Below, piece after piece: positions 6,623 to 43,055 of a DNA stretch of 64,000 nt. Made by a program: the position numbers and the translations under genes. The stretch comes from a virus. Under the pieces are notes generated by a model. It was given only the letters and a program-made list of their open reading frames with translations, made no database searches and had not been told where the DNA came from. The stretch is taken from IMG/VR virus record IMGVR_UViG_3300041586_000098, positions 1-64,000 of that record. The stretch is one strand, 5' to 3'. How positions within the stretch are numbered: position 1 is the stretch's first letter; each line of letters opens with the position of its first letter.

Positions 6623-6684
6623 CTAAACATTAAAAACTAAACATTAAAAACTAAACATTAAAAACTAAACATTAAAAACTAAAC
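6621..6684 (+). repeat. 14-bp tandem repeat, about 4.6 copies
   Basis: The unit AACTAAACATTAAA is repeated four times without change and then cut after AACTAAAC. It begins at the stop codon of the polymerase N half and ends just before nrdB. It could be a slippage product marking a rearrangement junction or an array of binding sites. Confidence 0.8.
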
Positions 6685-6700
6685 AAAATAAAAAATTAAT

Positions 6701-7681: not shown

Positions 7682-7707
7682 TTAATGTTCTTTTTTGATA
7701 AAAAAAG

Positions 7708-7754
7708 TCATGTGATTGAGATATATAAACTATAAAAATATAGCAATCACATGA
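7708..7754 (+). promoter_or_regulatory. Inverted repeat enclosing a late promoter and the HNH start codon
   Basis: TCATGTGATTG (7708-7718) is perfectly complementary to CAATCACATGA (7744-7754). The loop contains GATATATAAA (7720-7729), and the right arm contains the start ATG at 7751. A transcript coming from nrdB would fold and hide the start codon; one starting at the loop promoter would lack the left arm. T4 uses this arrangement to delay I-TevI. Confidence 0.65.
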
Positions 7755-9666: not shown

Positions 9667-9680
9667 AGTTTTATGTTCTG

Positions 9681-9734
9681 AGATAAAGTTGCAAAATTAT
9701 TTAAATATATATTAAAATAAAAGTAACTTTATCT
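9681..9734 (+). promoter_or_regulatory. Inverted repeat before the HNH gene
   Basis: AGATAAAGTT (9681-9690) is complementary to AACTTTATCT (9725-9734), one base before the ATG. Flanking GTTC and GAAC extend the stem over the start codon. The AT-rich loop contains AAATATATATTAAAATA, a weak late-promoter-like sequence. It probably limits translation from read-through transcripts. Confidence 0.5.
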
Positions 9735-9735
9735 T

Positions 9736-10680
9736 ATGAACTATGAACGAATATACAATAACTTATGTGAATTATGTAAAACAACTGATGTTAAAGATCG
9801 ATTAAGTAATAGGAATGCCAATGATGAAAGGCTTAGTGCAGACTATATTTATACTGAAAAACATCATATAGTACCTAAGCATATTGGAGGTGATGACTTA
9901 GAATCTAATCTAGTTGTTATGTTACCTGAAGAACACTATATGGCACATTTATTAAGATTTAAAGCTTATAATAATAGAAAAGATTTTCTAGCAATTAGAT
10001 TCATGGTTAACGGATATGTTTATAAGAAAAAAGTATCTAGTGCATTAAGTTCCAAATTAAAGAATAAGTTGGTTGCATCATTCAAACAGAATATATCAAT
10101 GTTTAGAAAGCAAAATACATGGCATAGTATTAAAGGTGTAAACAACATATCAGAAGCAAGAAAGGGTACAATGCCTGTTGTAGATTCTGAAACGCTTAAA
10201 ATGATAGGTTCTGTTGATGTAAATCATCCAAATGTTTTATCTGGAAAATGGAGACACCATTCAACTGGTAAGATATCAGTAATATGTAAAACATCAGGTG
10301 TTAAGAAATACATAACAGTGAATGAATATAGGGATAATTATGACGAATATCATGCAAACATCGGCGACGCTAAAGGTGAAAAGAATTCAAGATTTAGTGG
10401 ATTTACTGACGAAGAGCTTGTTAATATTGTATCTGAATTTTCAGTTGAAATGAACTTAGGATTTTTATTACCATATAGAATGGTGTCGACTTACTATAGA
10501 AAAATTAAAAAGTATGAAAAATTACCAAAATCATTTAGCTCGTTTAGATTTAATGGATTAGGTAGTAAAGAATTACATAGATTAGCATCTGAAAAAACAG
10601 GATTAGTTCTTAATGTATATTACAATAATAGTCCAAAAATAAGAAAAGAAATTAAAAACAAAAATATAACAATATGTTAA
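9736..10680 (+). CDS. HNH homing endonuclease between the NrdA intein halves
   Basis: A 314-residue protein. TEKHHIVPKHIGGDDLESN plus LPEEHYMAHLLRF form the HNH core, clearly related to the endonuclease at 7751 (same MN-x-E/K-x-IY-x-NL opening). The remaining 200 residues are probably DNA-binding. The gene lies exactly between the N- and C-intein coding parts of nrdA, and its stop overlaps the start of the C half. It likely mobilises the intein-containing nrdA segment. Confidence 0.85.
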   Translation: MNYERIYNNLCELCKTTDVKDRLSNRNANDERLSADYIYTEKHHIVPKHIGGDDLESNLVVMLPEEHYMAHLLRFKAYNNRKDFLAIRFMVNGYVYKKKVSSALSSKLKNKLVASFKQNISMFRKQNTWHSIKGVNNISEARKGTMPVVDSETLKMIGSVDVNHPNVLSGKWRHHSTGKISVICKTSGVKKYITVNEYRDNYDEYHANIGDAKGEKNSRFSGFTDEELVNIVSEFSVEMNLGFLLPYRMVSTYYRKIKKYEKLPKSFSSFRFNGLGSKELHRLASEKTGLVLNVYYNNSPKIRKEIKNKNITIC

Positions 10681-10772
10681 AAATACAATATTTAGAAGAA
10701 GAAATACCAGTCTTCGATATTACAGTAGAAGATAACCACAACTTCTACGGGGACGATATATTAGTCCACAAT
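10674..10772 (+). other. Split intein C half in NrdA (33 aa)
   Basis: Blocks F and G are readable as VFDITVEDNHNFY and DDILVHN, followed by Cys+1. Confidence 0.85.
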
Positions 10773-11660
10773 TGCAGTGAAATTCAGCTTCCAACTGATT
10801 CTTTTAATTCGTTTGTATGTTGTTTAGGTTCTATTAATCTTTTACATTGGGATGATATTAAAAAAACAGATGCTATCGAAACATATGTATTGTTCTTAAA
10901 TGCAGTTATGGATGAATTTATTAAGAAGTCATTTAAAATGCCAGGTATGTCAAGGGCACATCGATTTGCCGAACAACATAGAGCATTAGGTCTAGGGGTT
11001 CTTGGCTATCATTCACTATTCCAGTCAAAATTAATAACATTTGACTCTTTACAATCAAAGGCATTAAACCATGATATATTTTCAACTTTAAAGGAAAGAA
11101 GTGATGCGGCATCCCGATGGTTACATGATGAAAAAGGTTATCGATCACTAAGAGATGGATATGCAAATACAACATTAGTTGCGATTGCACCAACAAAGAG
11201 TAGTTCATTTATTTTAGGTCAAGTTTCAATGGGAATAGAACCTATTAAATCTAATTATTTTATTAAAGATTTAGCAAAGTCAAAAACAATATACAAAAAT
11301 CCATTTCTTATTGATGAATTAACTAAGTATAACTTAAATACTCCTGAAGTATGGGAAGGAATTCTCAAAAGAGATGGAAGTGTTCAGCACTTAGATTTTC
11401 CAACAAAAGAAGTTTTTAAATCTTTTGTTGAAATTACACCAAAGGAAATAGTTTTACAAGCAGCTCAGAGACAAAAATTTATAGATCAGTCACAATCATT
11501 AAATTTAATGATTCATCCTAGCGTTCCAGCAAAGGACATTAATAAATTGTATTTATATGCGCATGAAGAGGGAATCAAAACACTTTACTACCAATTTAGT
11601 CAAGGTTCAGCTCAATCATTTGCTAGAGATATTTTAGACTGTGCGAGTTGTGAAGCGTAA
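10674..11660 (+). CDS. nrdA: Ribonucleotide reductase large subunit, split C-intein plus C-extein
   Basis: Residues 1-33 are the C-intein, ending FYGDDILVHN. The extein begins CSEIQLPTDSFN, where the Cys corresponds to the thiyl-radical cysteine (Cys439 of E. coli NrdA). FVCCLGSINLLHW carries the second redox cysteine, and the C terminus ends DCASCEA, the C-x2-C pair that takes electrons from thioredoxin or glutaredoxin. It starts inside the stop of the HNH gene. Without trans-splicing neither half could be active. Confidence 0.9.
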   Translation: MLKIQYLEEEIPVFDITVEDNHNFYGDDILVHNCSEIQLPTDSFNSFVCCLGSINLLHWDDIKKTDAIETYVLFLNAVMDEFIKKSFKMPGMSRAHRFAEQHRALGLGVLGYHSLFQSKLITFDSLQSKALNHDIFSTLKERSDAASRWLHDEKGYRSLRDGYANTTLVAIAPTKSSSFILGQVSMGIEPIKSNYFIKDLAKSKTIYKNPFLIDELTKYNLNTPEVWEGILKRDGSVQHLDFPTKEVFKSFVEITPKEIVLQAAQRQKFIDQSQSLNLMIHPSVPAKDINKLYLYAHEEGIKTLYYQFSQGSAQSFARDILDCASCEA

Positions 11661-11717
11661 AGAAACGGCAGCTTGAAATATAGTTGCATTTTAGGACCGG
11701 GTTAGTTCACGGAAAGT

Positions 11718-11749
11718 AAAGCAGGGAATTCGCTACTCCCTGCTTTTTT
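11718..11749 (+). terminator. Rho-independent terminator after nrdA
   Basis: AAAGCAGGGA and TCCCTGCTTT form a strong hairpin followed by T residues. It closes the nrd unit. Confidence 0.8.
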
Positions 11750-11763
11750 ACATATATACATAT

Positions 11764-11773
11764 GATATATAAA
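11764..11773 (+). promoter_or_regulatory. Late-promoter-like GATATATAAA
   Basis: Lies 18 bases before the start of the KLFEQF-tagged gene at 11791, just after a terminator. This position supports a real transcription start. Confidence 0.5.
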
Positions 11774-11790
11774 GAAAACAGAAAACAATT

Positions 11791-12147
11791 ATGAAATACA
11801 TTAAATTATTTGAACAATTCACATCAACTACTAAAATAAATGAGGCTGGCGATGTTTCTGTGGATAAAATCACTTCACCGGCTGAAAAAAAAGCATTAAA
11901 GTCTGCTTTTGAAGAAGTTGTAACAGGAATCGACAAACTAACATTTAAAAAGAACGGTACAATCGAAGGTCGTCGAGGGTATTTCTATCGACATGGAAGT
12001 TCGCCAGAATCTGTCGCAAAAATATTACAAAGTAGTCTGCGATCTAAAAATATTGAAATTGAAATTGTAAACTCATATGATGATTACAGGTCATGGCCTA
12101 AAGATAGTAATTTTGTAGTAGTATTTAAAATAATTTCAGTATCATAG
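11791..12147 (+). CDS. Tagged hypothetical protein, possible internal head protein
   Basis: A 118-residue protein starting MKYIKLFEQF. Several proteins of this window share this opening; it resembles the capsid-targeting leader MKTYQEFI of T4 internal head proteins. INEAG around residue 18 could be a prohead protease site. The rest is a small alpha/beta protein with no recognised motif. It has its own late-type promoter and a strong terminator, as expected for a late gene placed among replication genes. Function unknown. Confidence 0.6.
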   Translation: MKYIKLFEQFTSTTKINEAGDVSVDKITSPAEKKALKSAFEEVVTGIDKLTFKKNGTIEGRRGYFYRHGSSPESVAKILQSSLRSKNIEIEIVNSYDDYRSWPKDSNFVVVFKIISVS

Positions 12148-12187
12148 TGAAACTAATTTAGTTGATAAAGATTTTACTAAAAATAAT

Positions 12188-12259
12188 TCCTTTCCCTGTG
12201 ATAGTATCAAGGGACCGACTCGAAAGAGTTTTAACCTGCTAGAAATAGCAGGTTTTTTT
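12188..12259 (+). terminator. Three consecutive hairpins ending in a terminator
   Basis: TCCCT..GATA.TATC..AGGGA, then ACTC-GAAA-GAGT, then ACCTGCTA-GAAA-TAGCAGGT followed by TTTTTTT. The last is a standard terminator (12234-12258). Two loops are GNRA-type GAAA tetraloops. The compact arrangement could also be a small structured RNA. Confidence 0.65.
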
Positions 12260-12263
12260 ATGT

Positions 12264-12291
12264 GAAACAAAACGCTAATTATGTTTATAAT
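12264..12291 (+). promoter_or_regulatory. Promoter GAAACA-N16-TATAAT
   Basis: GAAACA at 12264-12269 and TATAAT at 12286-12291, 16 bases apart. The same pair with the same spacing occurs at 34222 and 52192, and with TACAAT at 25303. It follows a terminator and precedes the sliding clamp gene by 31 bases. Confidence 0.6.
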
Positions 12292-12322
12292 ACTTAAATA
12301 ATATTATTTATAAATAGACAAC

Positions 12323-13087
12323 ATGAAAATTAGCATTGAAAAAGTAGATCAAAACAATTTTATTGGTTTTGTTAATAGGTTAAAGGTTATTGATACCTTT
12401 ATTTATTTTAAAATTAAAGACGGAGTAATTCAGGCTTCGGCTTATTTACCACAAAGAGATGCGGTAAAGCATCATAGGTTACCTATCGGTCAAGTCTTTC
12501 AATTAGAAGAAGATGCAATTGACAAGGTTAACAATAATAAGGAACTAAAAATTGCATTTTTTGATGCAAATAGATTAACTGATGCATTTAAGCAATTTGA
12601 ATTCGGCAACATACAGGCAGAAATAGAATTTGTTGAAAATGAAGAAGATTTTGTAGCAACTGAATTTCGTATTTTTAATAATGAATTAGAAATAACATTA
12701 TCATGTTCAGAACCATCCCTTGGATATAAAGATCTAACTGATTCACAGATTGCATCAATCTTTAACGTAGATGATGCTAAATATATATTCGACATGGATT
12801 ACACGGCAACATCAAAGGTTCGTTCACTGTTTGGATTAGACAAAGAAGAAACCTTTACAATTACCACAAGTAAGGCAGGTGTTAGAATGAAAGGTAAGAA
12901 TTATAATTATTTAGTAACAGAGGAATTTAAAGGATCTCCACAAAAGGATGTTACCCTATTTAAAAAATATTTAAATCTATTAGATAAAGAAGATTATACT
13001 GCAAATGTATTAGAAAACCGCGTTGTTTTAAGATCAAAGGATTCAGAAACTCTTTTAACAATTGCAACCTGCCAAACAGCTGAATAG
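12323..13087 (+). CDS. 45: Sliding clamp
   Basis: A 254-residue protein (T4 gp45 has 228). The repeated beta-alpha-beta pattern, LTDAFKQFEFG and the DKEETFTITTSKAGVRMKG region fit the phage PCNA-like processivity clamp. It would encircle DNA, tether the split DNA polymerase and, as in T4, help gp55-dependent late transcription. The gene is followed after two bases by the polymerase C half. Identification rests on overall pattern and context more than on short motifs. Confidence 0.75.
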   Translation: MKISIEKVDQNNFIGFVNRLKVIDTFIYFKIKDGVIQASAYLPQRDAVKHHRLPIGQVFQLEEDAIDKVNNNKELKIAFFDANRLTDAFKQFEFGNIQAEIEFVENEEDFVATEFRIFNNELEITLSCSEPSLGYKDLTDSQIASIFNVDDAKYIFDMDYTATSKVRSLFGLDKEETFTITTSKAGVRMKGKNYNYLVTEEFKGSPQKDVTLFKKYLNLLDKEDYTANVLENRVVLRSKDSETLLTIATCQTAE

Positions 13088-13089
13088 AT

Positions 13090-14286
13090 ATGACAATAGA
13101 TGAATTAATACTAAAACCGGAAGAAGATCTGACACAGAGTGAGATCAAAATATTGGTTGAACATTATTCAATGATGTCAGCTAAATATACAGCATACGAA
13201 CAGGCAGTTAAGGTAATGCTTAACTCAATATATGGTGCATTTGGAAATAAATGGTTTCACTTTTTTAACATAGACATTGCTGAATCTATTACACTACAGG
13301 GTCAATCCGCCATTTTATACTCAGAAAAAATTCTTAATAAGTATTTTCATGAATTTTGGCTTAAAGATAAGCAAGTGCATTCTCATTTTAATATTTCTAT
13401 TAAGAATAAACTAGTAAGACCATCTGTTGTTTATATTGACACCGATTCGGCTTATGTTCAATTCGAAGAAATGTATGAATCTATTGAGTGGAATGATGAT
13501 TATATGTCAATAGATAAGTTTATTATGGAATTATATAACTTTAGACTTAAGGATTACATTTTTAAGTGTATGGAAAAGTATTCAGAAGCAACAAATACCG
13601 AAAATTTTCTTGTATTTGAATTAGAAACAATAGCATATTCAGGAATATGGTTAGCTAAGAAAAAATATCTTCAAAATATAGCATGGGAAGACAGGCTTGA
13701 CATTAATGATAGATATCCTTCACTTAAAAAAATAAAAACAATAGGATTCGATACTATTCAAAGTTCAACACCTGCAATTGCAAGGAAGCATTTAACTGAA
13801 GCTCTTAAATTGATTCTTTCAGAAAAGCCAACTGCATCTTTACTAAAAAGATTAGTAGATTATTTAAAACAATGTAAAAAAGAATTTCAGCTTGCAGATA
13901 TAGATGAAATTTGCTTCAACAAAAGAACAAATAACATCGATAAGTATATTCTAGATGATACGACTGAATTCCAGTATGGCTTAAAATGCCCATCTAATGT
14001 CAAGGCGGCAGGTTTTTATAATTTTCTAATGAATAACAATCCAAAATATAAAAATAAATATAAGATGATTGGCAATGGAGAAAAGCTTAGACTATACCAT
14101 TGTAAACACTCTATTTGTGAAATATTTGCATATCAACCAAGTGCACATCCGTATGAAATTGCACCACCAGTGGATTATGAACTACAGTTTGAAAAAAGTG
14201 TAATTGATCCATTAAACAGAGTTCTTTCAGCGGTAGGATTACATACACTAAACAGAAATTTAATTTATTCAACATCATTATTTTAA
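13090..14286 (+). CDS. 43B: Family B DNA polymerase, C-terminal half (motifs B and C, thumb)
   Basis: A 398-residue piece. KVMLNSIYGAFGN (K41, Y48, G49) is motif B of the fingers, and VVYIDTDSAYV (D117, D119) is motif C with the catalytic aspartates. GIWLAKKKYLQN and the QSSTPAIARKHL segment follow as in T4 gp43. The C terminus ends STSLF, like the clamp-binding tail of T4 gp43. Together with 5225-6622 it makes a complete polymerase of about 863 residues. The halves are separated by nrdB, nrdA, endonucleases and the clamp gene. Confidence 0.9.
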   Translation: MTIDELILKPEEDLTQSEIKILVEHYSMMSAKYTAYEQAVKVMLNSIYGAFGNKWFHFFNIDIAESITLQGQSAILYSEKILNKYFHEFWLKDKQVHSHFNISIKNKLVRPSVVYIDTDSAYVQFEEMYESIEWNDDYMSIDKFIMELYNFRLKDYIFKCMEKYSEATNTENFLVFELETIAYSGIWLAKKKYLQNIAWEDRLDINDRYPSLKKIKTIGFDTIQSSTPAIARKHLTEALKLILSEKPTASLLKRLVDYLKQCKKEFQLADIDEICFNKRTNNIDKYILDDTTEFQYGLKCPSNVKAAGFYNFLMNNNPKYKNKYKMIGNGEKLRLYHCKHSICEIFAYQPSAHPYEIAPPVDYELQFEKSVIDPLNRVLSAVGLHTLNRNLIYSTSLF

Positions 14287-14288
14287 AC

Positions 14289-14453
14289 ATGGAAATAGAC
14301 AGCAAAAATTTAACAGAAGAACAATACGAGATAGTAAAAAAATATCAAAGTATTACTAAAAAACTTGAAAGTCTTCAAACTAAAATGCAGGCGATACAAG
14401 ATGAGGCACAATCACTCATGACAGAGCTTGAAGAATTAAGAATAAAATATTAG
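14289..14453 (+). CDS. Small coiled-coil protein (54 aa)
   Basis: ATG at 14289, two bases after the polymerase stop, opens a 54-residue frame ending TAG. It is almost entirely helical with a heptad pattern (KKLESLQTKMQAIQDEAQSL). Between polymerase and uvsX it may be a small accessory factor. Function unknown. Confidence 0.55.
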   Translation: MEIDSKNLTEEQYEIVKKYQSITKKLESLQTKMQAIQDEAQSLMTELEELRIKY

Positions 14454-14469
14454 AAAATAAAGAAAATAT

Positions 14470-15426
14470 ATGGCAAAAAATAAATTTACATTCGATGACT
14501 TAAACGCAGAATTAGCAGGATTAAACCCCTTAGGTTCTGTTATGGACCAATCAAATTTTTCTGAAGTAACAGAATGGATTCACACTGGAAATTATCATTT
14601 AAACGCATGTCTTTCTGGTTCGGTATGGGGAGGATGGCCTAATAACCGTTCTTGTTCAATAGCAGGACCATCTGGTACTGGAAAAACCTTTCTTACATTA
14701 AATTCAGTTCGAGAAGCAATTAACATGGGATATTATGTTATTTATTATGATTCAGAAGCTGCAGTAGATAAAGACCAAATGAAAAAGTTTGGTATTGATA
14801 TTAGTAAAGTAAATTATCAGCCTGTAAATACTGTACAGGCGTTTAGGACTTCAATCACTACTATTACTCAAAAAATGCAAGAGGTAAAAAGAAAAGGTGG
14901 AGAAGTACAAAAAATCATGATTATTCTTGATTCAGCAGGTAACCTTGCGACTGCAAAGGAAATTGATGATGCAACTAGTGGAAGTGAAAAGGCAGATATG
15001 ACTAGATCTAAGATTTTAAAATCTATTTTTAGAATCATAATGACTCCGCTTGCTGATTTAAAAATTCCATTTTTGTTTACTAATCATACTTATCAAACAC
15101 AAGACTTTATTTCAAGACAAGTTGCAGGTGGAGGTTGTTTAGTTCCAGGATCTAAAGTGAGAATGTTCGATAACACGCTAAAGAACATAGAAGATATAGT
15201 AGAAGGTGATTCAGTTCTTACATTAAATGGAGGTATGGAAATAGAAAACACATGGACGTTTGAAAAGAAAACATACCGAATAGAATTTGAAGATAATACG
15301 ATCATAGAATGTTCTGAAGATCATAGATTTTTTACAGGTAATGTTGAAGACGATCCATTAGATGACAATAATTGGATATTAGCAAGAGATTTAGTAAAAA
15401 ACAATGAAGTGTCTAGATATATATAA
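14470..15426 (+). CDS. uvsX: RecA/UvsX recombinase, N-extein plus split N-intein
   Basis: Residues 1-222 are the RecA-fold core: Walker A GPSGTGKT (66-73), MIILDSAGNL as Walker B, and FLFTNHTYQT. After VAGGG the sequence switches at residue 223 to an intein (CLVPGSKVRMFDN, then IIECSEDHRFF as block B), ending at residue 318. In T4 UvsX the corresponding position lies in the loop before TGPxYSA. The remaining 150 residues are at 16421-16993. UvsX drives strand exchange and recombination-dependent replication. Confidence 0.9.
   Translation: MAKNKFTFDDLNAELAGLNPLGSVMDQSNFSEVTEWIHTGNYHLNACLSGSVWGGWPNNRSCSIAGPSGTGKTFLTLNSVREAINMGYYVIYYDSEAAVDKDQMKKFGIDISKVNYQPVNTVQAFRTSITTITQKMQEVKRKGGEVQKIMIILDSAGNLATAKEIDDATSGSEKADMTRSKILKSIFRIIMTPLADLKIPFLFTNHTYQTQDFISRQVAGGGCLVPGSKVRMFDNTLKNIEDIVEGDSVLTLNGGMEIENTWTFEKKTYRIEFEDNTIIECSEDHRFFTGNVEDDPLDDNNWILARDLVKNNEVSRYI
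15136..15423 (+). other. Split intein N half in UvsX (96 aa)
   Basis: Begins with Cys (15136) after GGG. Block A is CLVPGSKV; block B has the conserved His in SEDHRFF. It ends after LARDLVKNNEV. Confidence 0.85.
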
Positions 15427-15450
15427 CAGGCGGTGGTTAACAGCCACCTA
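15416..15450 (+). promoter_or_regulatory. Late-promoter-like motif plus small hairpin
   Basis: GATATATATAACA (15416-15428) overlaps the end of uvsX-N. It is followed by GGTGG-TTAACAG-CCACC. TTTAGTA (15390-15396) and TACTAAA (15473-15479) could pair around it just before the endonuclease ATG, but this is only 7 bp. Confidence 0.35.
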
Positions 15451-15480
15451 TTATCTAACAAAAAATTGAAACTACTAAAA

Positions 15481-16473
15481 ATGCCAGTACTTAAGAAATA
15501 TATTAATCCAACATATGATGAATTTAAGAAACTTTTAAATACTCATTATAATGACATGAATATCAATAACGAAGAACATTTTTTAGAGATGTTTAGTTTC
15601 GTTTATTCTAATGAAATAAAAGGAGTATGTGGATTTAAATTAGAATGTCAAAAATTTTTTAAACAGAAAAGGAATGGTAAAGCAGTTTCTAAATTAAGCA
15701 CATCATATTGGAATTCCAGGGGATATGATAATGAATACGCTACCTTAAAAATAAGTGAATTACAAAGAAAAAACAGTAATGTATGTAATTCACATTGGAC
15801 AGATAAAGGGTATAATCAGATTGAAGCAACTTTAATGGTAGCTAATGAACAATCTAGAAGATCCAACTTGCGATATACTAAATATGATAAACATGAAATT
15901 AGTAGACAGTCAGTATGGTCTATCGAATATTGGAAAAACATAGGTTTTTCTGAAGAAGAAGCAAAATACGAGGCACATAAAAGGAATTATGGTTGCAGAG
16001 AATTCTGGTCTAGTGAAAGTGAATACGATACTATTAAAGCAATAATATCTAAAAAACAAAGTAACTTTATAAAAAATAATCCAGAAAAATTTGCATCTTT
16101 TTTCGGAAGCGTGTCTAAGGAGGAAGTTGTATTTTTCAATAATATCGTAAAATCTATTGATAATATAAAACATACTGAATTTATAGTTAACATACAGAAA
16201 TCTGAAGAGTTGAATCAAGGTATAATAAAATATGATGGCTATTTTAAAGACGAGGATTCATTAATTCTTATAGAATATGATGGGTTATATTGGCACAATC
16301 AAATATACGATGAAATAAAGGACAGAATATGTCTAGAATTTAGAAATGATATTACTGGAATTATTAGAGTAAGTGACAATTCATACAAGAATAATACAAA
16401 AACAATAAAATTAATAAAAGATGCAATTAAACAAATTAAAAATAAAGAGTGTAACCGAGTTAAAATCTACTAA
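15481..16473 (+). CDS. Homing endonuclease between the UvsX intein halves (Vsr-like fold)
   Basis: I start at ATG 15481 (MPVLKKYINPTYDEF), although a GTG at 15433 is also open. The N-terminal two thirds contain repeated modules of the form YW-x2-RGY-x3-EA (SYWNSRGYDNEYA, HWTDKGYNQIEA, EYWKNIGFSEEEA). The C-terminal part KYDGYFKDEDSLILIEYDG followed by LYWHN fits the Vsr-related nuclease family described in fractured genes with split inteins. The gene overlaps the start of uvsX-C by 53 bases. Confidence 0.75.
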   Translation: MPVLKKYINPTYDEFKKLLNTHYNDMNINNEEHFLEMFSFVYSNEIKGVCGFKLECQKFFKQKRNGKAVSKLSTSYWNSRGYDNEYATLKISELQRKNSNVCNSHWTDKGYNQIEATLMVANEQSRRSNLRYTKYDKHEISRQSVWSIEYWKNIGFSEEEAKYEAHKRNYGCREFWSSESEYDTIKAIISKKQSNFIKNNPEKFASFFGSVSKEEVVFFNNIVKSIDNIKHTEFIVNIQKSEELNQGIIKYDGYFKDEDSLILIEYDGLYWHNQIYDEIKDRICLEFRNDITGIIRVSDNSYKNNTKTIKLIKDAIKQIKNKECNRVKIY

Positions 16474-16540
16474 AGTACATGATTTAACAGTAAGAGATGT
16501 TCAACATTATATTACTGAAAATGGAGTAATACATCACAAT
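16421..16540 (+). other. Split intein C half in UvsX (40 aa)
   Basis: Blocks F and G are VHDLTVRDVQHYI and GVIHHN, followed by Thr+1. The coding sequence overlaps the endonuclease gene. Confidence 0.85.
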
Positions 16541-16993
16541 ACAGGTCCGGAGTATGCTGCTTCTATTGTTCTTATGTTAACTAAAGCACAATTAAAGGAT
16601 GGTACCGAAAAAGTTGGTATTATTGTAACGGCAAAACCTGATAAAAATAGATTTGCTAAGCCACATCCTATTAAGTTTCATTTAGATTTTACCAAAGGTA
16701 TGAATCCGTATGTTGGCCTAGAGCAATACGCAACATGGGATATCTGTGGAATCACAAGAGGTTCTATAGAAAAAGGAGTTAAAACACCAAAGGCAACAGC
16801 ACGCGGATGGATCTGCCAGCACCTAGATGAAGTAGTTACAAACTCTGAATTTTTTAGTGAAAAGGTATTTACAAAGGAGATATTAGAAAAAATAAATATT
16901 CATATTAAGCCCCTTTTTAACTATAATACCGAAAGCGATAATATAGATAACGAAATCGGAGCTTTACTTGATGAAAATTTAACAAACGAATAA
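16421..16993 (+). CDS. uvsX: RecA/UvsX recombinase, split C-intein plus C-extein
   Basis: Residues 1-40 are the C-intein ending YITENGVIHHN; the extein begins TGPEYAASIVLMLTK, with Thr as the +1 nucleophile. The following 150 residues match the C-terminal part of T4 UvsX in length and character. Extein lengths sum to about 372 residues (T4 UvsX 391). The start lies inside the endonuclease gene. Confidence 0.88.
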   Translation: MQLNKLKIKSVTELKSTKVHDLTVRDVQHYITENGVIHHNTGPEYAASIVLMLTKAQLKDGTEKVGIIVTAKPDKNRFAKPHPIKFHLDFTKGMNPYVGLEQYATWDICGITRGSIEKGVKTPKATARGWICQHLDEVVTNSEFFSEKVFTKEILEKINIHIKPLFNYNTESDNIDNEIGALLDENLTNE

Positions 16994-16994
16994 A

Positions 16995-17306
16995 ATGGAA
17001 GTTAGTCTTATGTCATATAATGAAGATAAACTACCTATAAAATATATACTAGGCATACAAGGGGAACTTGAAAACTTCCCTGATGCCTTTGATATAATTT
17101 ACATTTATTTATCTGAAACAATAAACCGTCCAAGTAGACCGATGCATAATTTTACAAAACCATCATTGATTAAATATCATGCTAAAGGAAATATATTTAA
17201 TGTCGAAAAGGGACTGACTCAAGCAATATCTCTTGGACTAATAGAGCAAACTAAATTTGAAGAAGGAAAGGAATCGTATACAATAATAATAAATCCATTT
17301 CAATAA
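16995..17306 (+). CDS. Hypothetical protein between uvsX and the helicase gene
   Basis: A 103-residue frame starting one base after the uvsX-C stop. It is acidic at the N terminus, and the middle and C-terminal parts (PSLIKYHAKGNI, GLTQAISLGLIEQTKFEEG) look like a small winged-helix fold. T4 carries the small gene 40 at this position, but similarity is not evident. It is followed by an operator-like repeat region. Function unknown. Confidence 0.55.
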   Translation: MEVSLMSYNEDKLPIKYILGIQGELENFPDAFDIIYIYLSETINRPSRPMHNFTKPSLIKYHAKGNIFNVEKGLTQAISLGLIEQTKFEEGKESYTIIINPFQ

Positions 17307-17313
17307 GATACAT

Positions 17314-17370
17314 TGTTCAACATTTACATCTGTTCAACCACAATGAACATTCAAATATAATGAACATTCA
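17314..17370. repeat. Four TGTTCA/TGAACA boxes, operator-like
   Basis: TGTTCAAC occurs at 17314 and 17331 (17 bp apart), and the inverted TGAACATTCA at 17344 and 17361 (17 bp apart). The array lies directly upstream of the helicase gene with TATAATAC at 17391. Paired inverted boxes at fixed spacing suggest a dimeric regulator or replication-related protein. Confidence 0.5.
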
Positions 17371-17422
17371 GATATAATGAAACTTAGTCCTATAATACAT
17401 TATAATTAAAAACAAATAACAA

Positions 17423-18736
17423 ATGAAATTCGGACAAGATTTTGAAAAAATATTCTTTCAGTTAGCTTTAGCAAAACCAAAATACCTAGAAAAAATACAT
17501 AAAGGGTTCTATACATCAGATGAAATAGACACCATGCATTTTTTAGCAACTAAATTCTACGAAAAATTCCATGAATCACCAAAGGCAGAACAAATGAAAA
17601 TTTTAGTTCAAAGTCCTAAATTCAAAGGTAAGGTAGAAGAATCAATAATTGAATTAGTATATAAGACAGATCTAACTCAATATGATGAAGAGTGGTTAGT
17701 ATCAACGGCTGAAGCATGGATTAAATGGAGAACATTCGATACAACTTTAATCGATACCATTGAATATATTAAGACAACTGAAGTTACTCCTGAAAATGCA
17801 GATCAAATTATATCTAAAGTAAAAAGCTTAATTAATGACAGGAACTCTATTGTATTTAATTCAGATATTGGATTAGATTTCTTTAATGTTGACGATCACT
17901 ATCAAGAAGGAAGAGTAAAGGTTTCAACTGGATATAATTTCTTAGATAGACTGCTTACTGGTGGATATGATAAAGATGGATCTTTAGTAGTTTATGTCGG
18001 TGAGCAAAATATTGGAAAATCGATTTATCTAGCAAATGACGCTGCAAACTTTGTTAAAATGGGAGTTAACACTGCATTTGTTTCAGCAGAGATGGCAGCA
18101 CATAAGGTTCTTAAAAGAATAGGAGCAAACTTGTTAACCATTCCAATGAGTGAATATGATATTAAAGCACAAAATAAAGATTTAATCAAAAGAAAGTTAG
18201 AAAACGTAGGAAATGGATTAACACCACCAGGTCAATTATTTGTTAAACAATTTCCAACATCACAAGCAACTGTACCTGATATTGAAGCATACTTAAAGCA
18301 AATTGAAGAAGAAAGAAAAATAAAATTAAGCTGTGTAGTCATTGACTATATTAATATTTTAGCGAATTATAGAAATCCAAATTCTGAAAATATGTACTTA
18401 AAAATTAAGCAAATTGCAGAAGATTTAAGAGCTATGGGAGTTAGAAACGGCTGGCTAATAGTAACTGCAACCCAGATCAACAGAAACAATTATAATTCTA
18501 GTGATATTGGAATGGGTGATGTTGCAGAATCCGCAGGACTTTCTCATACAGCAGATTTAATGCTTGGAATTATTCAAGACGATATGATGCGTGCAAGTAG
18601 CGAATATTGGCTTAAGGTTTTAAAGATTAGAGATGGTGAAGGTAAAGGAGTAAAATGTAGATTAAATATAAACTATCAATATATGCGTCTTACTGAAACC
18701 GAAGATGTTACAAATTCAAATATACATAATTTATAA
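17423..18736 (+). CDS. 41: Replicative DNA helicase (DnaB-type)
   Basis: A 437-residue protein (T4 gp41 has 475). The N-terminal helical domain is followed by a RecA-like ATPase: Walker A GEQNIGKS (193-200), FVSAEMAAHKVLKRI (helicase motif 1a), CVVIDYINIL (Walker B) and LIVTATQINR (motif 3). It would form the hexamer unwinding DNA at the fork and carry the primase. A four-box repeat upstream may control it. The stop is followed after two bases by the next gene. Confidence 0.88.
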   Translation: MKFGQDFEKIFFQLALAKPKYLEKIHKGFYTSDEIDTMHFLATKFYEKFHESPKAEQMKILVQSPKFKGKVEESIIELVYKTDLTQYDEEWLVSTAEAWIKWRTFDTTLIDTIEYIKTTEVTPENADQIISKVKSLINDRNSIVFNSDIGLDFFNVDDHYQEGRVKVSTGYNFLDRLLTGGYDKDGSLVVYVGEQNIGKSIYLANDAANFVKMGVNTAFVSAEMAAHKVLKRIGANLLTIPMSEYDIKAQNKDLIKRKLENVGNGLTPPGQLFVKQFPTSQATVPDIEAYLKQIEEERKIKLSCVVIDYINILANYRNPNSENMYLKIKQIAEDLRAMGVRNGWLIVTATQINRNNYNSSDIGMGDVAESAGLSHTADLMLGIIQDDMMRASSEYWLKVLKIRDGEGKGVKCRLNINYQYMRLTETEDVTNSNIHNL

Positions 18737-18738
18737 AT

Positions 18739-19179
18739 ATGAAAGAGAGAGATAAAATATTCGATAATACATTTGAAGAAAGCAGTTTTGAAATAGATCC
18801 TACATTTTCATTTAATATAGCCCCTAGTCATACCGATAATCGAGACGAGGAAGACAAAATAGAAAATAAAATAATTATTGCTAAAATTCACGAACTAATA
18901 GAATCTTCTAGGTTTAAGCATTTTAATAATATTAATGAATTTAATCAAACGATTAAATTAAAAAAAATAGAAATAAATGAAATTTATGAGTATATTTCAG
19001 ATGAGCTTAGACCTAATCATTCAATAATTGAAATATATTCAGAAACATGTGATTATTTTAATGTAAATCCAACAAAATTCTATCAGTCACTTGGCAATAA
19101 ATTTAAAGAAGAATTAATAGAGGTACTAGATAGAAAAACAAATGTACTAAAGAAAAAGAATATAAATAGATTATTCTAA
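18739..19179 (+). CDS. Hypothetical protein between helicase and gp47
   Basis: A 146-residue protein, acidic and probably disordered in the first 50 residues (SSFEIDPTFSFNIAPSHTD). The remainder is helical (IHELIESSRFKHFNNINEF; YSETCDYFNVNPTKFYQSL). Tight packing between genes 41 and 47 suggests a role in replication or recombination, for example a helicase loader or an accessory factor. I do not recognise the family. Confidence 0.55.
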   Translation: MKERDKIFDNTFEESSFEIDPTFSFNIAPSHTDNRDEEDKIENKIIIAKIHELIESSRFKHFNNINEFNQTIKLKKIEINEIYEYISDELRPNHSIIEIYSETCDYFNVNPTKFYQSLGNKFKEELIEVLDRKTNVLKKKNINRLF

Positions 19180-19182
19180 ACA

Positions 19183-20295
19183 ATGATAGAGCAAGCAATA
19201 TTAGACAAACCTGTAAAAAGAATTTGGATTTTAGGAGATATGCATTTAGGTGTTCGTTCAAGCTCATTAGAATGGCTAGAAATGCAAAGGGACTTTTATG
19301 ATAATCAATTCATTCCTACTCTTCTAGAAAATTTTAAAGATGGAGATATTCTAGTTCAAGTAGGTGATATATTCGACAACAGACAAAGTGTAAATATTAA
19401 AGTTTTACATTATGTAATAGACCTATTTGAAAGATTAGGTAAAATAATGCCAACATATGCTATTGCAGGTAATCATGATATATGGGCAAAGAAAAGCAAT
19501 GAAGTAAGTTCTATTGATATCTTAAAGTGGATTCCTAACGTTTCTATTTATAAAGAACCAAAAACATTTAATTGGGGTGGTAGAGAAGTTCTTTTAATGC
19601 CATGGAGAAGAGACACTCAACATGAAGTGGAAACTCTTAAGGAATATCCAACCGCTGAAATACTATTTTGTCATTCTGAGGTTAGAGGTATTAAACTAAA
19701 CAGAAAGGTAGATAATCAACATGGAGTTGACTCTGAATCATATGATAGATTTACTGCAGTTTTTTCAGGACACATCCATTATAGACAAAGAAGAGGCAAA
19801 CTTAGAATGGTTGGCACTCCATACGAACTAACTAGATCGGATATGGATAATACTAAAGGCTTTGATTTGGTTAATTTAGAGGACATGCAAGAAACGTTTT
19901 TTGAAAATACTATATCACCAAAGTTTGTTAAATTTTATTTAACACAAGTGTATAATATGCCTCTAGGAACCTTTAAAGATGCCATCAGAAACAACTATGT
20001 AGATCTATATGTTCCTTCTAATGTTGCAACAACATCTGCACTTTCAAGACTTATTAATAAAGTACAAAAAATTAGCAGAAAAATAGATCCAAACATATAT
20101 GAACAAGATACTTTTATTGATGAAGATCTTTTAGATATGGAGCAAATCGAAGATCTTTATAAAAATTATAATATTCTTCATTTATGTAATATGTATGTTG
20201 ATAATTTACAACATAATGATGCAGTCAAATTACAAATAAAGGATAGATTAAAGAAACTTCATGACTTTCATGCATATAATAATCAAACAGATTAA
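19183..20295 (+). CDS. 47: Recombination nuclease subunit (SbcD/Mre11-like)
   Basis: A 370-residue metallophosphoesterase. GDMHLG (D19, H21), QVGDIFDNR, AGNHDIWA, FCHSEV and FSGHIHYR supply the usual metal-binding series of Mre11/SbcD/T4 gp47. With gp46 it forms a complex that resects DNA ends for recombination-dependent replication. It directly precedes the fractured gene 46. Confidence 0.9.
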   Translation: MIEQAILDKPVKRIWILGDMHLGVRSSSLEWLEMQRDFYDNQFIPTLLENFKDGDILVQVGDIFDNRQSVNIKVLHYVIDLFERLGKIMPTYAIAGNHDIWAKKSNEVSSIDILKWIPNVSIYKEPKTFNWGGREVLLMPWRRDTQHEVETLKEYPTAEILFCHSEVRGIKLNRKVDNQHGVDSESYDRFTAVFSGHIHYRQRRGKLRMVGTPYELTRSDMDNTKGFDLVNLEDMQETFFENTISPKFVKFYLTQVYNMPLGTFKDAIRNNYVDLYVPSNVATTSALSRLINKVQKISRKIDPNIYEQDTFIDEDLLDMEQIEDLYKNYNILHLCNMYVDNLQHNDAVKLQIKDRLKKLHDFHAYNNQTD

Positions 20296-20298
20296 ATT

Positions 20299-20508
20299 AT
20301 GAAAATACAAAGCATTGAACTAAAAAACTTTGCATCATATGGAAATAAGATTCAAAGAATAGAATTTGATGAAGACAATGCTCAATTGTTCTTAACTATA
20401 GGCAAAAATGGAGAAGGTAAGTGTCTTTCAAAGAAGACGTTAATCGATATTCATATAGAAGATGTAAATATTAGAAAAGATTTTTTAAAATTTCTAGAAA
20501 ATAAGTGA
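20299..20508 (+). CDS. 46: Gp46 (SbcC/Rad50-like), N-extein plus very short N-intein
   Basis: Only 69 residues. Residues 1-41 are the start of an SMC/Rad50 ATPase: MKIQSIELKNFASYG and the Walker A beginning IGKNGEGK. At residue 42 the sequence becomes intein, starting CLSKKTLIDIHIED, and stops after 28 residues. The intein therefore interrupts the P-loop just after its lysine. The other part of gp46 is at 21687-23606. Extein lengths sum to about 557 residues, as in T4 gp46 (560). Confidence 0.85.
   Translation: MKIQSIELKNFASYGNKIQRIEFDEDNAQLFLTIGKNGEGKCLSKKTLIDIHIEDVNIRKDFLKFLENK
20422..20505 (+). other. Atypical split intein N half in gp46 (28 aa)
   Basis: Starts with Cys (20422) directly after GEGK and contains only block A (CLSKKTLIDI) plus about 18 residues. 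Such short N-inteins are known from atypically split inteins such as AceL-TerL. Confidence 0.8.
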
Positions 20509-20514
20509 TTTTAC

Positions 20515-20557
20515 CCATTGTTACCTAGATATATATAATAAACAAAGGTAACAATGG
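20515..20557 (+). promoter_or_regulatory. Inverted repeat enclosing a late promoter and the endonuclease start
   Basis: CCATTGTTACC (20515-20525) is perfectly complementary to GGTAACAATGG (20547-20557). The loop contains GATATATATAATA (20528-20540), and the right arm contains the ATG at 20554. This is the same design as at 7708-7754. Confidence 0.65.
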
Positions 20558-21684
20558 ATAAATTAACACTAGAATACTTGCTATTAAAATCTAATAAAAT
20601 TAAACTTAATAATTTTAAGGAACATGTAATATTAGAAGTGTTTAACCAATATATTGATTCCGATATATTAAATTTACCTAATTGTAAAATTAAAAAAATT
20701 GTTTCTGATTTTTTAAGTGAATCTCATCAATATAATACTAGTAATAAAAATCCACTACAGATAAATTATTATTTAGTAAGAGGATGGACTGAAATAGATG
20801 CTAAACTTGCAATATCGAATATACAAAAATCTAATAATGCTAAAATCCAAAGAAAAAGAAAAGAAAATCCCGAAAATTATAAAAAAATATTAAGTCCGTA
20901 TACTGTGGATTTTTGGATTAAAAAGGGATTTTCAGAAGAAGAATCTATTGATAAAATAAAGGAGTGTAGGCCGAATAATCATAATTACTGGATTAAAAAA
21001 GGATATTCAATATCGGAGGCTGACGCTAAAGTTTCTCTATTTCAGAAGGAAATGTCAGCTAAATTATCAACTAAGAGATTAGAATCTCCAATGAACTATG
21101 ATGGAATATTAACTACACAAACTGAATATTGGAAAAAACGTGGATATTCAATAGAAGAATCTTTTGCCATAGTTAAGGAAAGACAAACTACATTTACTTT
21201 AGATAAATGCATTTTAAAACATGGTATCACAAAAGGTACTATCGTTTTTAATGACAGGCAAAGGAAATGGTTAAAGTCTCTGTATGCTAACTTTGAAAAA
21301 TATGGAGATGGAAGATCTCCTCAAAGTAAATGGGTTAATGATATTAAAATTATCCTAACTAATAGTGGAATTTTAATTCCCGACAAAGAAAAATGGATAA
21401 GAGAAAAGGAAACTAATGGTAAAGGGTACTCATATGATTTAACCGTTAATAAAAAAATCATTGAGTTTAATGGCGATTATTGGCATGCAAATCCTTTAAT
21501 ATATGGCGAAGATTGGATTAATAAAACTAAAAAAATGACAGCATCTGAAATATGGCAATATGATGTAGACAAAATAAAGTTAGCAGAATTACACGGATAT
21601 AAAGTTTTAACAGTATGGGAGTCTCAATATAATAAAGATCCTAACGACGTAATACAACGGATTCTTGAATTTTTAATAAATTAA
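20554..21684 (+). CDS. Homing endonuclease between the gp46 intein halves (Vsr-like)
   Basis: A 376-residue protein. Residues about 65-215 contain four tandem modules of the type W-I-KKG-[FY]-S-x-E-E (VRGWTEIDAKLA, FWIKKGFSEEES, YWIKKGYSISEA, YWKKRGYSIEES). The C-terminal 160 residues include YSYDLTVNKKIIEFNGDYW and HANP, a Vsr-like nuclease core. This C-terminal region is nearly identical to that of the TerL-associated endonuclease at 41984. The gene ends two bases before gp46-C. Confidence 0.78.
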   Translation: MDKLTLEYLLLKSNKIKLNNFKEHVILEVFNQYIDSDILNLPNCKIKKIVSDFLSESHQYNTSNKNPLQINYYLVRGWTEIDAKLAISNIQKSNNAKIQRKRKENPENYKKILSPYTVDFWIKKGFSEEESIDKIKECRPNNHNYWIKKGYSISEADAKVSLFQKEMSAKLSTKRLESPMNYDGILTTQTEYWKKRGYSIEESFAIVKERQTTFTLDKCILKHGITKGTIVFNDRQRKWLKSLYANFEKYGDGRSPQSKWVNDIKIILTNSGILIPDKEKWIREKETNGKGYSYDLTVNKKIIEFNGDYWHANPLIYGEDWINKTKKMTASEIWQYDVDKIKLAELHGYKVLTVWESQYNKDPNDVIQRILEFLIN

Positions 21685-21686
21685 AT

Positions 21687-22055
21687 ATGATTAAATGTAC
21701 ATTAGAGGATTTATACGAATTTAATAAAATAAATGGAGTAGTAAATTCAGGTAATTTTAAGGTAAAAACTAGATGTGGATTAAAACAAATAAATGCAATT
21801 GCGATTACAGCAACTGACAGCATACAGCACCATATCATTACAAATAACAGGTCTGTCATATCATCACCCGATCATTTATTTTTCAGCAATGGATGGAAAA
21901 AGGCTTCTTTATTTAAGGTAGGAGATTCCATTGAAACAATAGACGGTATTGAATATGTTAAGCACAACATTATATTAGAAGACACTGATGATTTACTAGA
22001 TATTGAAGTTGCAGAAATCAAAGAGTTTTATGCTAATGGATTTGTATCTCATAAT
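21687..22055 (+). other. Atypical split intein C half in gp46 (123 aa)
   Basis: Carries blocks B, F and G of the intein (SPDHLF; DIEVAEIKEFYAN; GFVSHN), complementing the 28-residue N half; Ser+1 follows. Confidence 0.8.
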
Positions 22056-23606
22056 AGTACTATTGCTAATGCAATAGTTTTTGCTTTATATGGTAAAGTA
22101 GAAGGAGTAAAATTATCTGATCTTCCAAACCGAATTAATAAGGAGTTATGGGTAAGAATTAAACTTCAATGTAAATCAACTAACGTTGTAATTGAAAGAG
22201 GACTAGCACCTGGTATTTTTAAAGTTGAATTAAATGGAATTGAATTCGATAAGGCAGGTAAAAAATCAGTTCAAGATTATCTTGAAGAAGAAATATTTGG
22301 GATTCCATATCATGTATTTAAAAACATCATTATTCTTTCAGTTAATGATTTTAAATCATTTTTAACAATGAATAATAATGATAAAAGACAGATCATTGAC
22401 AAGATGTTTGGTTTTTCTATTCTTAATGAAATGCAAAATGCAATTAGAGAAGAAAGAAAATTACTCAAAGGCGATATAGATTCATTTAGTAGGGAATTAA
22501 TTCAAATAAGTAATAACATACTTTCGGTAAAGGAAAAGCTTGAAATTTTAATGGTAGAAAGTCAAGCAAAAGACAAACAAAAAATACAAGAACTTAAAGA
22601 TACTTTAGTAAAATACAATGATAATAAAAATAAACTAGAAGATGCACAATTAAAAATATCTGAAAGCATAGGAACGTTGTCAATGGATCTAAGGGTTAAA
22701 CAATCAGATGAATCTGATTTTAAATACAAGCTTGCCGAAATTAAGAAAAAGCTTGTATTATATGAAAATAATACATGTCCAACATGTGCAAGTGCATTAA
22801 GTAATGAATTCCATATTGACAGAAAAAAAGAACTTATTAATGAATTAGAATTAATTCCAAGCAAATTAACAGATGCTACTGCTTTGGTATGTAATGTATC
22901 ACGTGATATTAATGAACTAAGACAAAAGGATAGAGCAGTACAGGACAAGGTTTCTACTTTAAATACTAATATTCGAATGTTTAAAAATGAACTTATTAAA
23001 ATAAGAGATTCAATTAAAGGAACAGCCGACTTTTCACATTTAGAACAGATTATAAGCGACTTTGAAAAACAAGAATTAGAAAAAGGTTCATTTAGAGATA
23101 TTAAATCAATTGACTTTGGATTCTTAGAACTGATAGAAGATGTATTAGGTGAAGATGGAGTTAAAAATCTAGCAATTAAAACTATTTTACCGGGATTAAA
23201 TGCAAACATATCATCGATGGTGCAAATTATGCACTTACATTTTCACATAAGATTTGATGAAAAGTTTAATTGTATAATCAACCATTTAGGAGAAGAAATT
23301 AATCCATTAACATTATCAACTGGTGAACGTAAAAAGGCAGATTTTATCATAATTATAGCAATTATTAAGATTTTAAAATTAAGATTTCCACAATTAAATT
23401 TACTATTCTTAGATGAATTATTGAGTTCAGTAGATGCAGATGGAATACATAACATATTAAAGATCTTAAGTCAAGTAATTAAAGAAAGTAAAATAAATAC
23501 ATTTGTAATTAATCACACCCCATTGCCTAGAGAAATTTTTGATGCAGAGGTTCAAATTTACAGAGAAAATGGTTTTTCAAAGTTTGATGTTATTAAAATT
23601 GATTAA
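21687..23606 (+). CDS. 46: Gp46, long split C-intein plus C-extein
   Basis: Residues 1-123 are the large C-intein, with a block-B-like SSPDHLFFSNGW and the end FYANGFVSHN. The extein begins STIANAIVFALYG, completing the P-loop GEGK-ST. A long coiled coil follows, centred on the zinc-hook NTCPTCASA, then the signature LSTGERKKADF and Walker B LNLLFLDELLSSVDADG. It acts with gp47 in DNA end processing. Ser is the +1 splicing nucleophile. Confidence 0.88.
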   Translation: MIKCTLEDLYEFNKINGVVNSGNFKVKTRCGLKQINAIAITATDSIQHHIITNNRSVISSPDHLFFSNGWKKASLFKVGDSIETIDGIEYVKHNIILEDTDDLLDIEVAEIKEFYANGFVSHNSTIANAIVFALYGKVEGVKLSDLPNRINKELWVRIKLQCKSTNVVIERGLAPGIFKVELNGIEFDKAGKKSVQDYLEEEIFGIPYHVFKNIIILSVNDFKSFLTMNNNDKRQIIDKMFGFSILNEMQNAIREERKLLKGDIDSFSRELIQISNNILSVKEKLEILMVESQAKDKQKIQELKDTLVKYNDNKNKLEDAQLKISESIGTLSMDLRVKQSDESDFKYKLAEIKKKLVLYENNTCPTCASALSNEFHIDRKKELINELELIPSKLTDATALVCNVSRDINELRQKDRAVQDKVSTLNTNIRMFKNELIKIRDSIKGTADFSHLEQIISDFEKQELEKGSFRDIKSIDFGFLELIEDVLGEDGVKNLAIKTILPGLNANISSMVQIMHLHFHIRFDEKFNCIINHLGEEINPLTLSTGERKKADFIIIIAIIKILKLRFPQLNLLFLDELLSSVDADGIHNILKILSQVIKESKINTFVINHTPLPREIFDAEVQIYRENGFSKFDVIKID

Positions 23607-23609
23607 AGA

Positions 23610-23619
23610 GATATATAAC
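23610..23619 (+). promoter_or_regulatory. Late-promoter-like GATATATAAC
   Basis: Lies 17 bases upstream of the gp15-like start and marks the switch from replication to structural genes. Confidence 0.5.
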
Positions 23620-23636
23620 TAAAAATAGAGATTTAA

Positions 23637-24419
23637 ATGTCAGTATATAATCAAAAATATAATTCCGATGATAGTATTGTAAGACATCTTATTATCGGAT
23701 TTCTTGCAGATTTAAATAACAAGGTATATTTTCATAGACAGATTTCAGCAAAGGAAAGAGTTATAATTGATGTTCCTTTTTATTATTCTATATCAGGTGA
23801 TGATCAATTCCTAAGAGATCAATTTTTATTTTCAACAGCTTCCGGACCATATTGCACACCAGACAAGGAGTATGCCGATGCCAACTATGATATCGTTCCA
23901 AGGGGCGTAGCTAATTTAACTTCTGTTAATATAGATGCATCTAAATTAGTTAACAAAAGAACAGTAGGTAGTTACACTAAATTAAACAGTGAAGGTGCTA
24001 TGGAAGGTTATACTGCTGAATTTGATATGATTCCAATAACATTAGGGTTTGATGTTGAAATATTAGTTTCTTCTTCGATCGATTCATTAAAAATAACTGA
24101 ATCTATTATTAAAAAACTATACAAATCAAATTATTATGATGTAGAGGTAGGACACCTAGATGAAGGCACATATAGAATTTCATCATACTATGCATTTCCA
24201 GATGATTACACGCAAGAAAGACCACTTAATTTTACATTCGAAGATAAGGAGATGTATAAGGTTACATTTGCTATTGAAATTAATTCATTCATTCCTTCAT
24301 TTAGTTGGGGCAATGAACAAGGATCAGATAGTACTGAAAGACATATTAGTAATCGAATGTATAATATTGAATCTAATATTATAACAGGTGGCACATCAGA
24401 CACTTCAATTATAGATTAA
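23637..24419 (+). CDS. 15: Tail completion / sheath stabiliser protein (gp15-like)
   Basis: A 260-residue protein (T4 gp15 has 272). The N-terminal layout (IVRHLIIGFLADLNNKVYFHRQ, then VDVPF-type strands) and the later GFDVEILVSSSIDSLKITESI fit gp15, which caps the top of the contracted or extended tail and joins it to the neck. It is transcribed from a late-type promoter at the start of the structural region. Identification is by pattern and context. Confidence 0.6.
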   Translation: MSVYNQKYNSDDSIVRHLIIGFLADLNNKVYFHRQISAKERVIIDVPFYYSISGDDQFLRDQFLFSTASGPYCTPDKEYADANYDIVPRGVANLTSVNIDASKLVNKRTVGSYTKLNSEGAMEGYTAEFDMIPITLGFDVEILVSSSIDSLKITESIIKKLYKSNYYDVEVGHLDEGTYRISSYYAFPDDYTQERPLNFTFEDKEMYKVTFAIEINSFIPSFSWGNEQGSDSTERHISNRMYNIESNIITGGTSDTSIID

Positions 24420-41904: not shown

Positions 41905-41909
41905 TATTC

Positions 41910-41999
41910 ATTCTTTACGATATCTGTCAACTTACAAGAAACATTTAGATATATAATTATATAATATATAAATAGATATAGTTATGAAAGATAAAGAAT
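41910..41999 (+). promoter_or_regulatory. Late promoter with partial flanking inverted repeats
   Basis: GATATATAATTATATAA begins at 41948. ATTCTTTA (41910-41917) can pair with TAAAGAAT (41992-41999, codons 3-6 of the endonuclease), and TATCT near 41921 with AGATA near 41974. The stem is weaker than at 7708 and 20515 but follows the same plan. Confidence 0.4.
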
Positions 42000-43045: not shown

Positions 43046-43055
43046 ATATTACAAT

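What the first reader, a model, noticed from the sequence alone, without database searches (positions are those of the whole stretch)
20422..22055. Gp46 carries an extremely early-split intein (28-residue N half) inside the Walker A loop
The N-terminal ORF is only 69 residues: 41 of gp46 and 28 of intein, with only block A. The remaining 123 intein residues are on the downstream ORF. I know this atypical split from TerL (AceL-TerL), but not from the gp46/SbcC/Rad50 family. Short N-inteins are chemically accessible and valued for protein labelling, so a new natural example is useful.
Basis: partly seen in the sequence, partly recalled or inferred. Interest (0 to 1): 0.75.

Follow-up and report, generated by a model that had tools for sequence, protein, structure and literature searches.

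The report
Mobile early-split intein in phage gp46
In a T4-like phage, the gene for the recombination ATPase gp46 is cut in two inside its ATP-binding loop by a self-splicing protein element made of two separately encoded pieces with a DNA-cutting gene between them; it is a new example of a known kind of element, and a nearly identical phage without it shows that it arrived recently.

Summary
Confirmed. The gp46/SbcC gene is broken at GEGK|S: a 69-aa ORF (41 gp46 + 28 intein residues), a free-standing endonuclease ORF (376 aa), then an ORF of 123 intein residues + the rest of gp46. Three divergent relatives have the same layout; in two the endonuclease gene has decayed while both intein halves stay intact and under purifying selection. 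The C half is predicted to fold as a Hint intein (best PDB match VidaL).

Against an unsplit relative, only the first 14-19 residues of the N half belong to the intein fold; the first alpha-helix is in the C half. The break is therefore at the S1 position (VidaL, PolB16 OarG), not at S2 (AceL-TerL). The other 10-14 residues are an extra conserved tail. A 28-aa N half is inside the known natural range of 15-37.

A phage identical over flanking DNA lacks exactly this unit, with a conversion tract of at most 60 bp upstream and 3 bp downstream (+1 Thr to Ser). The endonuclease is Vsr/I-Bth0305I-like; its start lies in an RNA hairpin whose loop holds a late-type promoter motif. New member, in a host gene I found no report of, of the known 'fractured gene' split inteins. 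Trans-splicing is inferred.

The parts
20299..20421 (+). gp46 N-extein, 41 residues, ending in Walker A GEGK
   Evidence: phrog_77 1e-6; same start as the uninterrupted gene in L007
20422..20505 (+). N-intein, 28 residues (block A core about 1-14/19, then an extra tail), followed by TGA 20506-20508
20515..20557 (+). RNA hairpin with a 12-bp perfect stem (CCATTGTTACCT / AGGTAACAATGG) enclosing the endonuclease start codon
   Evidence: z -5.1 (81 nt), -6.1 (44 nt); three two-sided compensatory pairs against L005
20528..20535 (+). GATATATA late-type promoter motif in the hairpin loop
   Evidence: 15 copies on + strand, 0 on -, 14 within 80 nt upstream of ORFs, including virion genes
20554..21684 (+). 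free-standing Vsr / I-Bth0305I-like homing endonuclease, 376 aa (motif IIEFNGDYWH)
   Evidence: Foldseek 1vsr, 1cw0, 3r3p probability 0.99-1.00 but E 0.04-0.06; 77% identical catalytic half to the TerL endonuclease
21687..22055 (+). C-intein, 123 residues, ending in HN
   Evidence: AF2 pLDDT 82; Foldseek VidaL E 9e-7, CatC, gp41-1; PF14890 with joined halves
22056..23606 (+). gp46 C-extein, starting with Ser+1
   Evidence: phrog_77 1.4e-63; +1 is Thr in 75 of 76 intein-less relatives

Best explanation
This is a mobile, naturally split class 1 intein of the S1 (break before the first helix) kind. The N half (gp46 1-41 plus 28 residues) and the C half (123 residues plus the rest of gp46) are made as separate proteins; the short N half docks into the C half and completes the Hint fold. 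Cys1 then takes an N-to-S acyl shift at GEGK, Ser+1 attacks, Asn cyclises, and gp46 with an intact Walker A loop (GEGKST) is released. The endonuclease between the halves cuts intein-less gp46, and recombination copies the whole unit (N half, endonuclease, C half) into it. It is kept off early read-through RNA by a hairpin over its start and is made late from a promoter in the hairpin loop. Shown from sequence: the anatomy, conservation in four lineages, predicted Hint fold of the C half, position of the split, isogenic empty and occupied alleles, endonuclease decay without loss of the intein, hairpin and promoter motif. Inferred: trans-splicing, endonuclease cutting of gp46, late expression.
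For: ORFs and junctions. Four diverged lineages with Cys1, HN and Ser+1 invariant. C half modelled (pLDDT 82) with the strong PDB matches all Hint/intein domains, VidaL first; joined halves match PF14890 in 3 of 3, intein_Cterm in 3 of 3 and intein_Nterm in 2 of 3. N half aligns to residues 1-14/19 of the unsplit Weasels2 DnaE intein (0 of 500 shuffles as good) and the C-half start to residues 25-31/42 (0-3 of 500). pN/pS core 0.28, tail 0.39; dN/dS of C half 0.13-0.17. Endonuclease gene decayed in L004 and L087 with both halves intact. L007 is identical over 840 nt further upstream and about 800 nt downstream and lacks exactly the unit; differences are 11 nt within 60 nt upstream and 2 nt in the +1 codon, and blastn shows the same gap. 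Hairpin and motif.
Against: No splicing or cleavage data. The N tail has no counterpart in Hint folds, and the C-half helix is of low model confidence, so the exact docking is unknown. The joined fold could not be modelled. The late role of GATATATA rests on its position before virion genes only. The hairpin comparison rests on two sequences (73 of 500 shuffles reach the covariation score, though slid controls show no two-sided change).
Confidence: 0.86

Rival explanations
1. The split is of the AceL-TerL (S2) kind: the N-half tail (RKDFLKFLENK) is its own first helix and the C half carries a second, redundant copy (TLEDLYEF).
For: Length 28 is like AceL (25) and CatN (30), and the tail can be laid over CatN MEDLYQRLA by eye.
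Against: In four lineages the C-half start, not the tail, matches the helix of an unsplit relative, and the N half stops matching at residue 14-19. Invariant CTLED in all C halves.
Confidence: 0.1
2. The intein halves no longer splice and gp46 is simply broken in this phage.
For: No functional data; unusually short N half.
Against: Purifying selection on both halves and on the C-extein; catalytic residues invariant; halves intact where the endonuclease has decayed; gp46-gp47 is a core recombination gene in T4.
Confidence: 0.05
3. An intron, a sequencing error or an assembly artefact rather than a split intein.
For: The gene interruption alone would allow it.
Against: No Rfam family matches window 7000-24000 at gathering threshold; block A and the terminal HN are present at protein level; the same layout occurs in contigs at 58-61% identity.
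Confidence: 0.01

Closest known systems
VidaL and PolB16 OarG atypically split inteins (S1 site; N halves 16 and 15 aa)
   Same: Break before the first helix; very short N half; VidaL is the best structural match of the C half
   Different: Host gene gp46; a further 10-14 residue tail on the N half; PolB16 is Ser1
AceL-TerL, GOS-TerL and the consensus Cat intein (S2 site; N halves 25, 37, 30 aa)
   Same: Short N half; C half 34% identical to CatC in the Foldseek match; phage P-loop gene
   Different: Their N half holds the first helix; here it is in the C half
'Fractured genes' of Dassa et al. 2009 (abstract recalled from memory; paper not held)
   Same: Enzyme gene broken by a split intein with a free-standing Vsr-like endonuclease gene between the halves
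   Different: gp46 as host (whether their set includes it could not be checked); isogenic empty allele; endonuclease-less descendants
I-Bth0305I / Vsr-like homing endonucleases
   Same: C-terminal fold and EFNGDYWH motif
   Different: Different N-terminal region, carrying repeated 'YWxxKGYSxxEA'-like units
T4 I-TevI, segB and Aeh1 mobE hairpin regulation
   Same: Hairpin over the start region with a late promoter so placed that late RNA escapes the hairpin (PMC2988022)
   Different: Here inside a split-intein unit; promoter motif GATATATA

Membership tests
Split intein, class 1 | Cys/Ser at position 1 and C-terminal HN followed by Ser/Thr/Cys | tested here: met
   C1, H150, N151 invariant in the 3 joined sequences; C1 in all 4; HN|S in all 4
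Split intein, class 1 | Block B TxxH | tested here: met
   SPDH in all four, Ser for Thr; His invariant
Split intein, class 1 | Hint fold | tested here: met
   C half only: Foldseek matches with E <= 0.001 are Hint/intein domains. The joined fold was not modelled
Split intein, class 1 | Halves on separate ORFs that splice in trans | not testable with these tools
   Separate ORFs shown; the reaction needs a bench test
S1 atypically split intein (VidaL, PolB16) | Break before the first helix | tested here: met
   Alignment to the unsplit Weasels2 intein with shuffle control; predicted helix 6-16 in the C half, low confidence
S2 atypically split intein (AceL-TerL) | First helix inside the N half | tested here: not met
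Fractured gene | Free-standing endonuclease gene between the intein halves | tested here: met
   ORF 20554-21684; intact in L003 and L005/L006
Vsr-like / I-Bth0305I endonuclease | Vsr-type catalytic fold | tested here: inconclusive
   Top three PDB matches are two Vsr entries and I-Bth0305I, probability 0.99-1.00 but E 0.04-0.06, model pLDDT 65; no sequence-level PDB match

The most novel reading that the evidence does not exclude
A split intein with its intergenic endonuclease homes as one unit, and the N half has gained a non-Hint tail that acts as a dedicated docking element for an S1-type break.
Probability: 0.35. Interest if true: 0.6.

Novelty: new member of a known kind. Interest (0 to 1): 0.47.

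Why it matters
It adds gp46/SbcC/Rad50 as a host of atypically split inteins and gives a compact pair (28 + 123 residues, Cys1/Ser+1) with four natural variants to test for peptide labelling. More usefully for evolution, the occupied and empty alleles in otherwise identical DNA, together with endonuclease-less descendants that keep the split, catch gain of the unit and loss of the endonuclease in one gene, so the mobility of split inteins becomes directly testable.

Tried and rejected
AceL-type reading of the split (rejected by alignment). Group I intron (no Rfam hit). Recoding of TGA (a relative has TAA at the same codon; only about ten codons would be added). Canonical T4 late promoter TATAAATA (22 matches against about 20 expected); GATATATA is the strand-biased motif. 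Cellular genomes: no relative. Named phages: no gp46 intein, only TerL, pol III and RNR inteins as distant relatives. Endonuclease by sequence against PDB: none. Hairpins are weak or absent at the TerL, UvsX and gp41 endonucleases, so that regulation is not universal. A first flank comparison failed on the anchor and was redone.

Full report
Observation. The 69-aa ORF 20299-20508 ends in Walker A GEGK, then 28 residues CLSKKTLIDIHIEDVNIRKDFLKFLENK and TGA. The ORF 21687-23606 starts with 123 residues ending in SHN and goes on with STIANAIVF of gp46. The two parts match the SbcC-like family phrog_77 on either side of the break (1e-6 and 1e-63). The window is part of a 73-kb IMG/VR virus record.

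Relatives. In IMG/VR, the C half plus gp46 finds four intein-bearing contigs and, among the best 80 kept, 76 uninterrupted gp46 genes; a fifth intein-bearing contig came from an alignment search (L087), and two more scans found no others. They form four lineages: window/L003, L004, L005/L006 and L087. The C halves are 59-67% identical to the window's. All have Cys1, a tail with two invariant Phe (F21, F24 of the N half), MI[KE]CTLED at the C-half start and HN|ST at its end. L087 also has a 28-residue N half, ended by TAA at the same place. None was found in 50,697 phage records or by a pattern scan of cellular genomes.

Fold. AlphaFold2 of the C half with seven sequences gives pLDDT 82 and pTM 0.72. 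Its strong PDB matches are Hint/intein domains, VidaL first (E 9e-7, TM 0.78), then RadA, Mtu RecA, CatC and gp41-1. The joined halves match Pfam Intein_splicing in all three scanned, and the NCBI intein C-terminal (3 of 3) and N-terminal (2 of 3) models.

Where it is split. The 2026 literature recognises two natural early split sites: S1 before the first helix (VidaL, PolB16 OarG) and S2 after it (AceL, GOS-TerL), with N halves of 15-37 residues (PMC13014065; PMC10189870). The unsplit DnaE intein of Rhodococcus phage Weasels2 reads CLAEDTLVDIMIDDDESDELSYETCTLEQVYNLF. The gp46 N halves align to its residues 1-14/19 (0 of 500 shuffles as good), and the gp46 C-half starts to residues 25-31/42 (0-3 of 500). 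So the break is S1, the Hint part of the N half is about 14-19 residues, and the rest is an extra tail, under weaker but still purifying constraint (pN/pS 0.39 against 0.28 for the core). The TerL intein of the same phage keeps its helix in the N half, so both kinds of break occur in one genome. The CatN sequence is; the AceL sequence used in the alignment was recalled from memory.

Mobility. L007 (a 170-kb contig) is identical to the window over 840 nt further upstream and about 800 nt downstream of the site but lacks the unit: GAAGGTAAA|ACAACT. The only nearby differences are 11 nt within 60 nt upstream and two in the +1 codon, Thr to Ser. Of 76 intein-less relatives, 75 have Thr there, and L007 agrees with them at the upstream differences that change residues (KS and LTL), so the window gained the unit rather than L007 losing it (inference). 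blastn shows the same gap. The near-identical record of L003 has the gp46 unit and also split-intein units in gp41 (GK|S) and in the DNA polymerase (YIDTD|S) that the window lacks. In L004 and L087 the endonuclease is reduced to fragments while both halves are intact.

Endonuclease. Its fold matches Vsr and I-Bth0305I (probability 0.99-1.00, E 0.04-0.06), with the motif IIEFNGDYWH. Its catalytic half is 77% identical to that of the TerL endonuclease of the same phage and 70% to the gp41 one, but 58% to its own counterpart in L005, while the first 200 residues align best to L005 (37% over 205). So the recognition part appears to go with the site and the catalytic part appears to have been exchanged between sites.

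Control of the endonuclease. Its start codon sits in a 12-bp perfect stem (z -5.1 and -6.1). L005 keeps the stem with three two-sided changes, one G-U and one mismatch; slid controls give none, but only two sequences bear on this. The loop has GATATATA, found 15 times on the coding strand, never on the other, 14 times within 80 nt upstream of an ORF, including sheath, tube and prohead genes. T4 I-TevI, segB and Aeh1 mobE use the same logic (PMC2988022).

Mechanism and limits. The most likely working is trans-splicing of two early products into gp46 with an intact Walker A loop, and homing of the whole unit by the late endonuclease. The P-loop K|T site is a classic intein site (PMC5050341). Splicing, cutting and timing are inferred. 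Priority is uncertain because Dassa 2009 was not held and most subscription papers could not be searched.

Noticed in passing
window 8602-11660, 14470-16993, 41350-44939: Three more genes (ribonucleotide reductase, UvsX, TerL) are broken by split inteins with an endonuclease ORF between the halves, so the window holds four such units.
   Followed up: partly
L121:5837-7715; L120:19549 to L121:1262: A near-identical phage has further split-intein units in gp41 helicase (GK|S) and DNA polymerase (YIDTD|S) that the window lacks.
   Followed up: partly
window 5225-6622 and 13090-14286: DNA polymerase gp43 is split into two ORFs about 6.5 kb apart with nrd genes between and no visible intein; a short tandem repeat follows the first part (about 6620-6690).
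   Followed up: no
window, 15 sites (e.g. 23610, 28888, 44973, 47349): GATATATA occurs only on the coding strand, nearly always 12-50 nt before an ORF, including virion genes: probable late promoter of this phage.
   Followed up: partly
window 7720-7760 and 9660-9740: Two HNH endonuclease ORFs also start inside strong hairpins (z -5.0 and -5.3); the first has GATATATA at the loop.
   Followed up: partly
window 20506-20508 and 41902-41904: Of 47 ORF ends checked only two are TGA, and by the coordinates both N-intein halves (gp46, TerL) end in TGA.
   Followed up: no
window 1103-2527: An ORF that looks like a TROVE/vWA-type (Ro60-like) protein, judged by eye only (VDVSGSMS motif).
   Followed up: no
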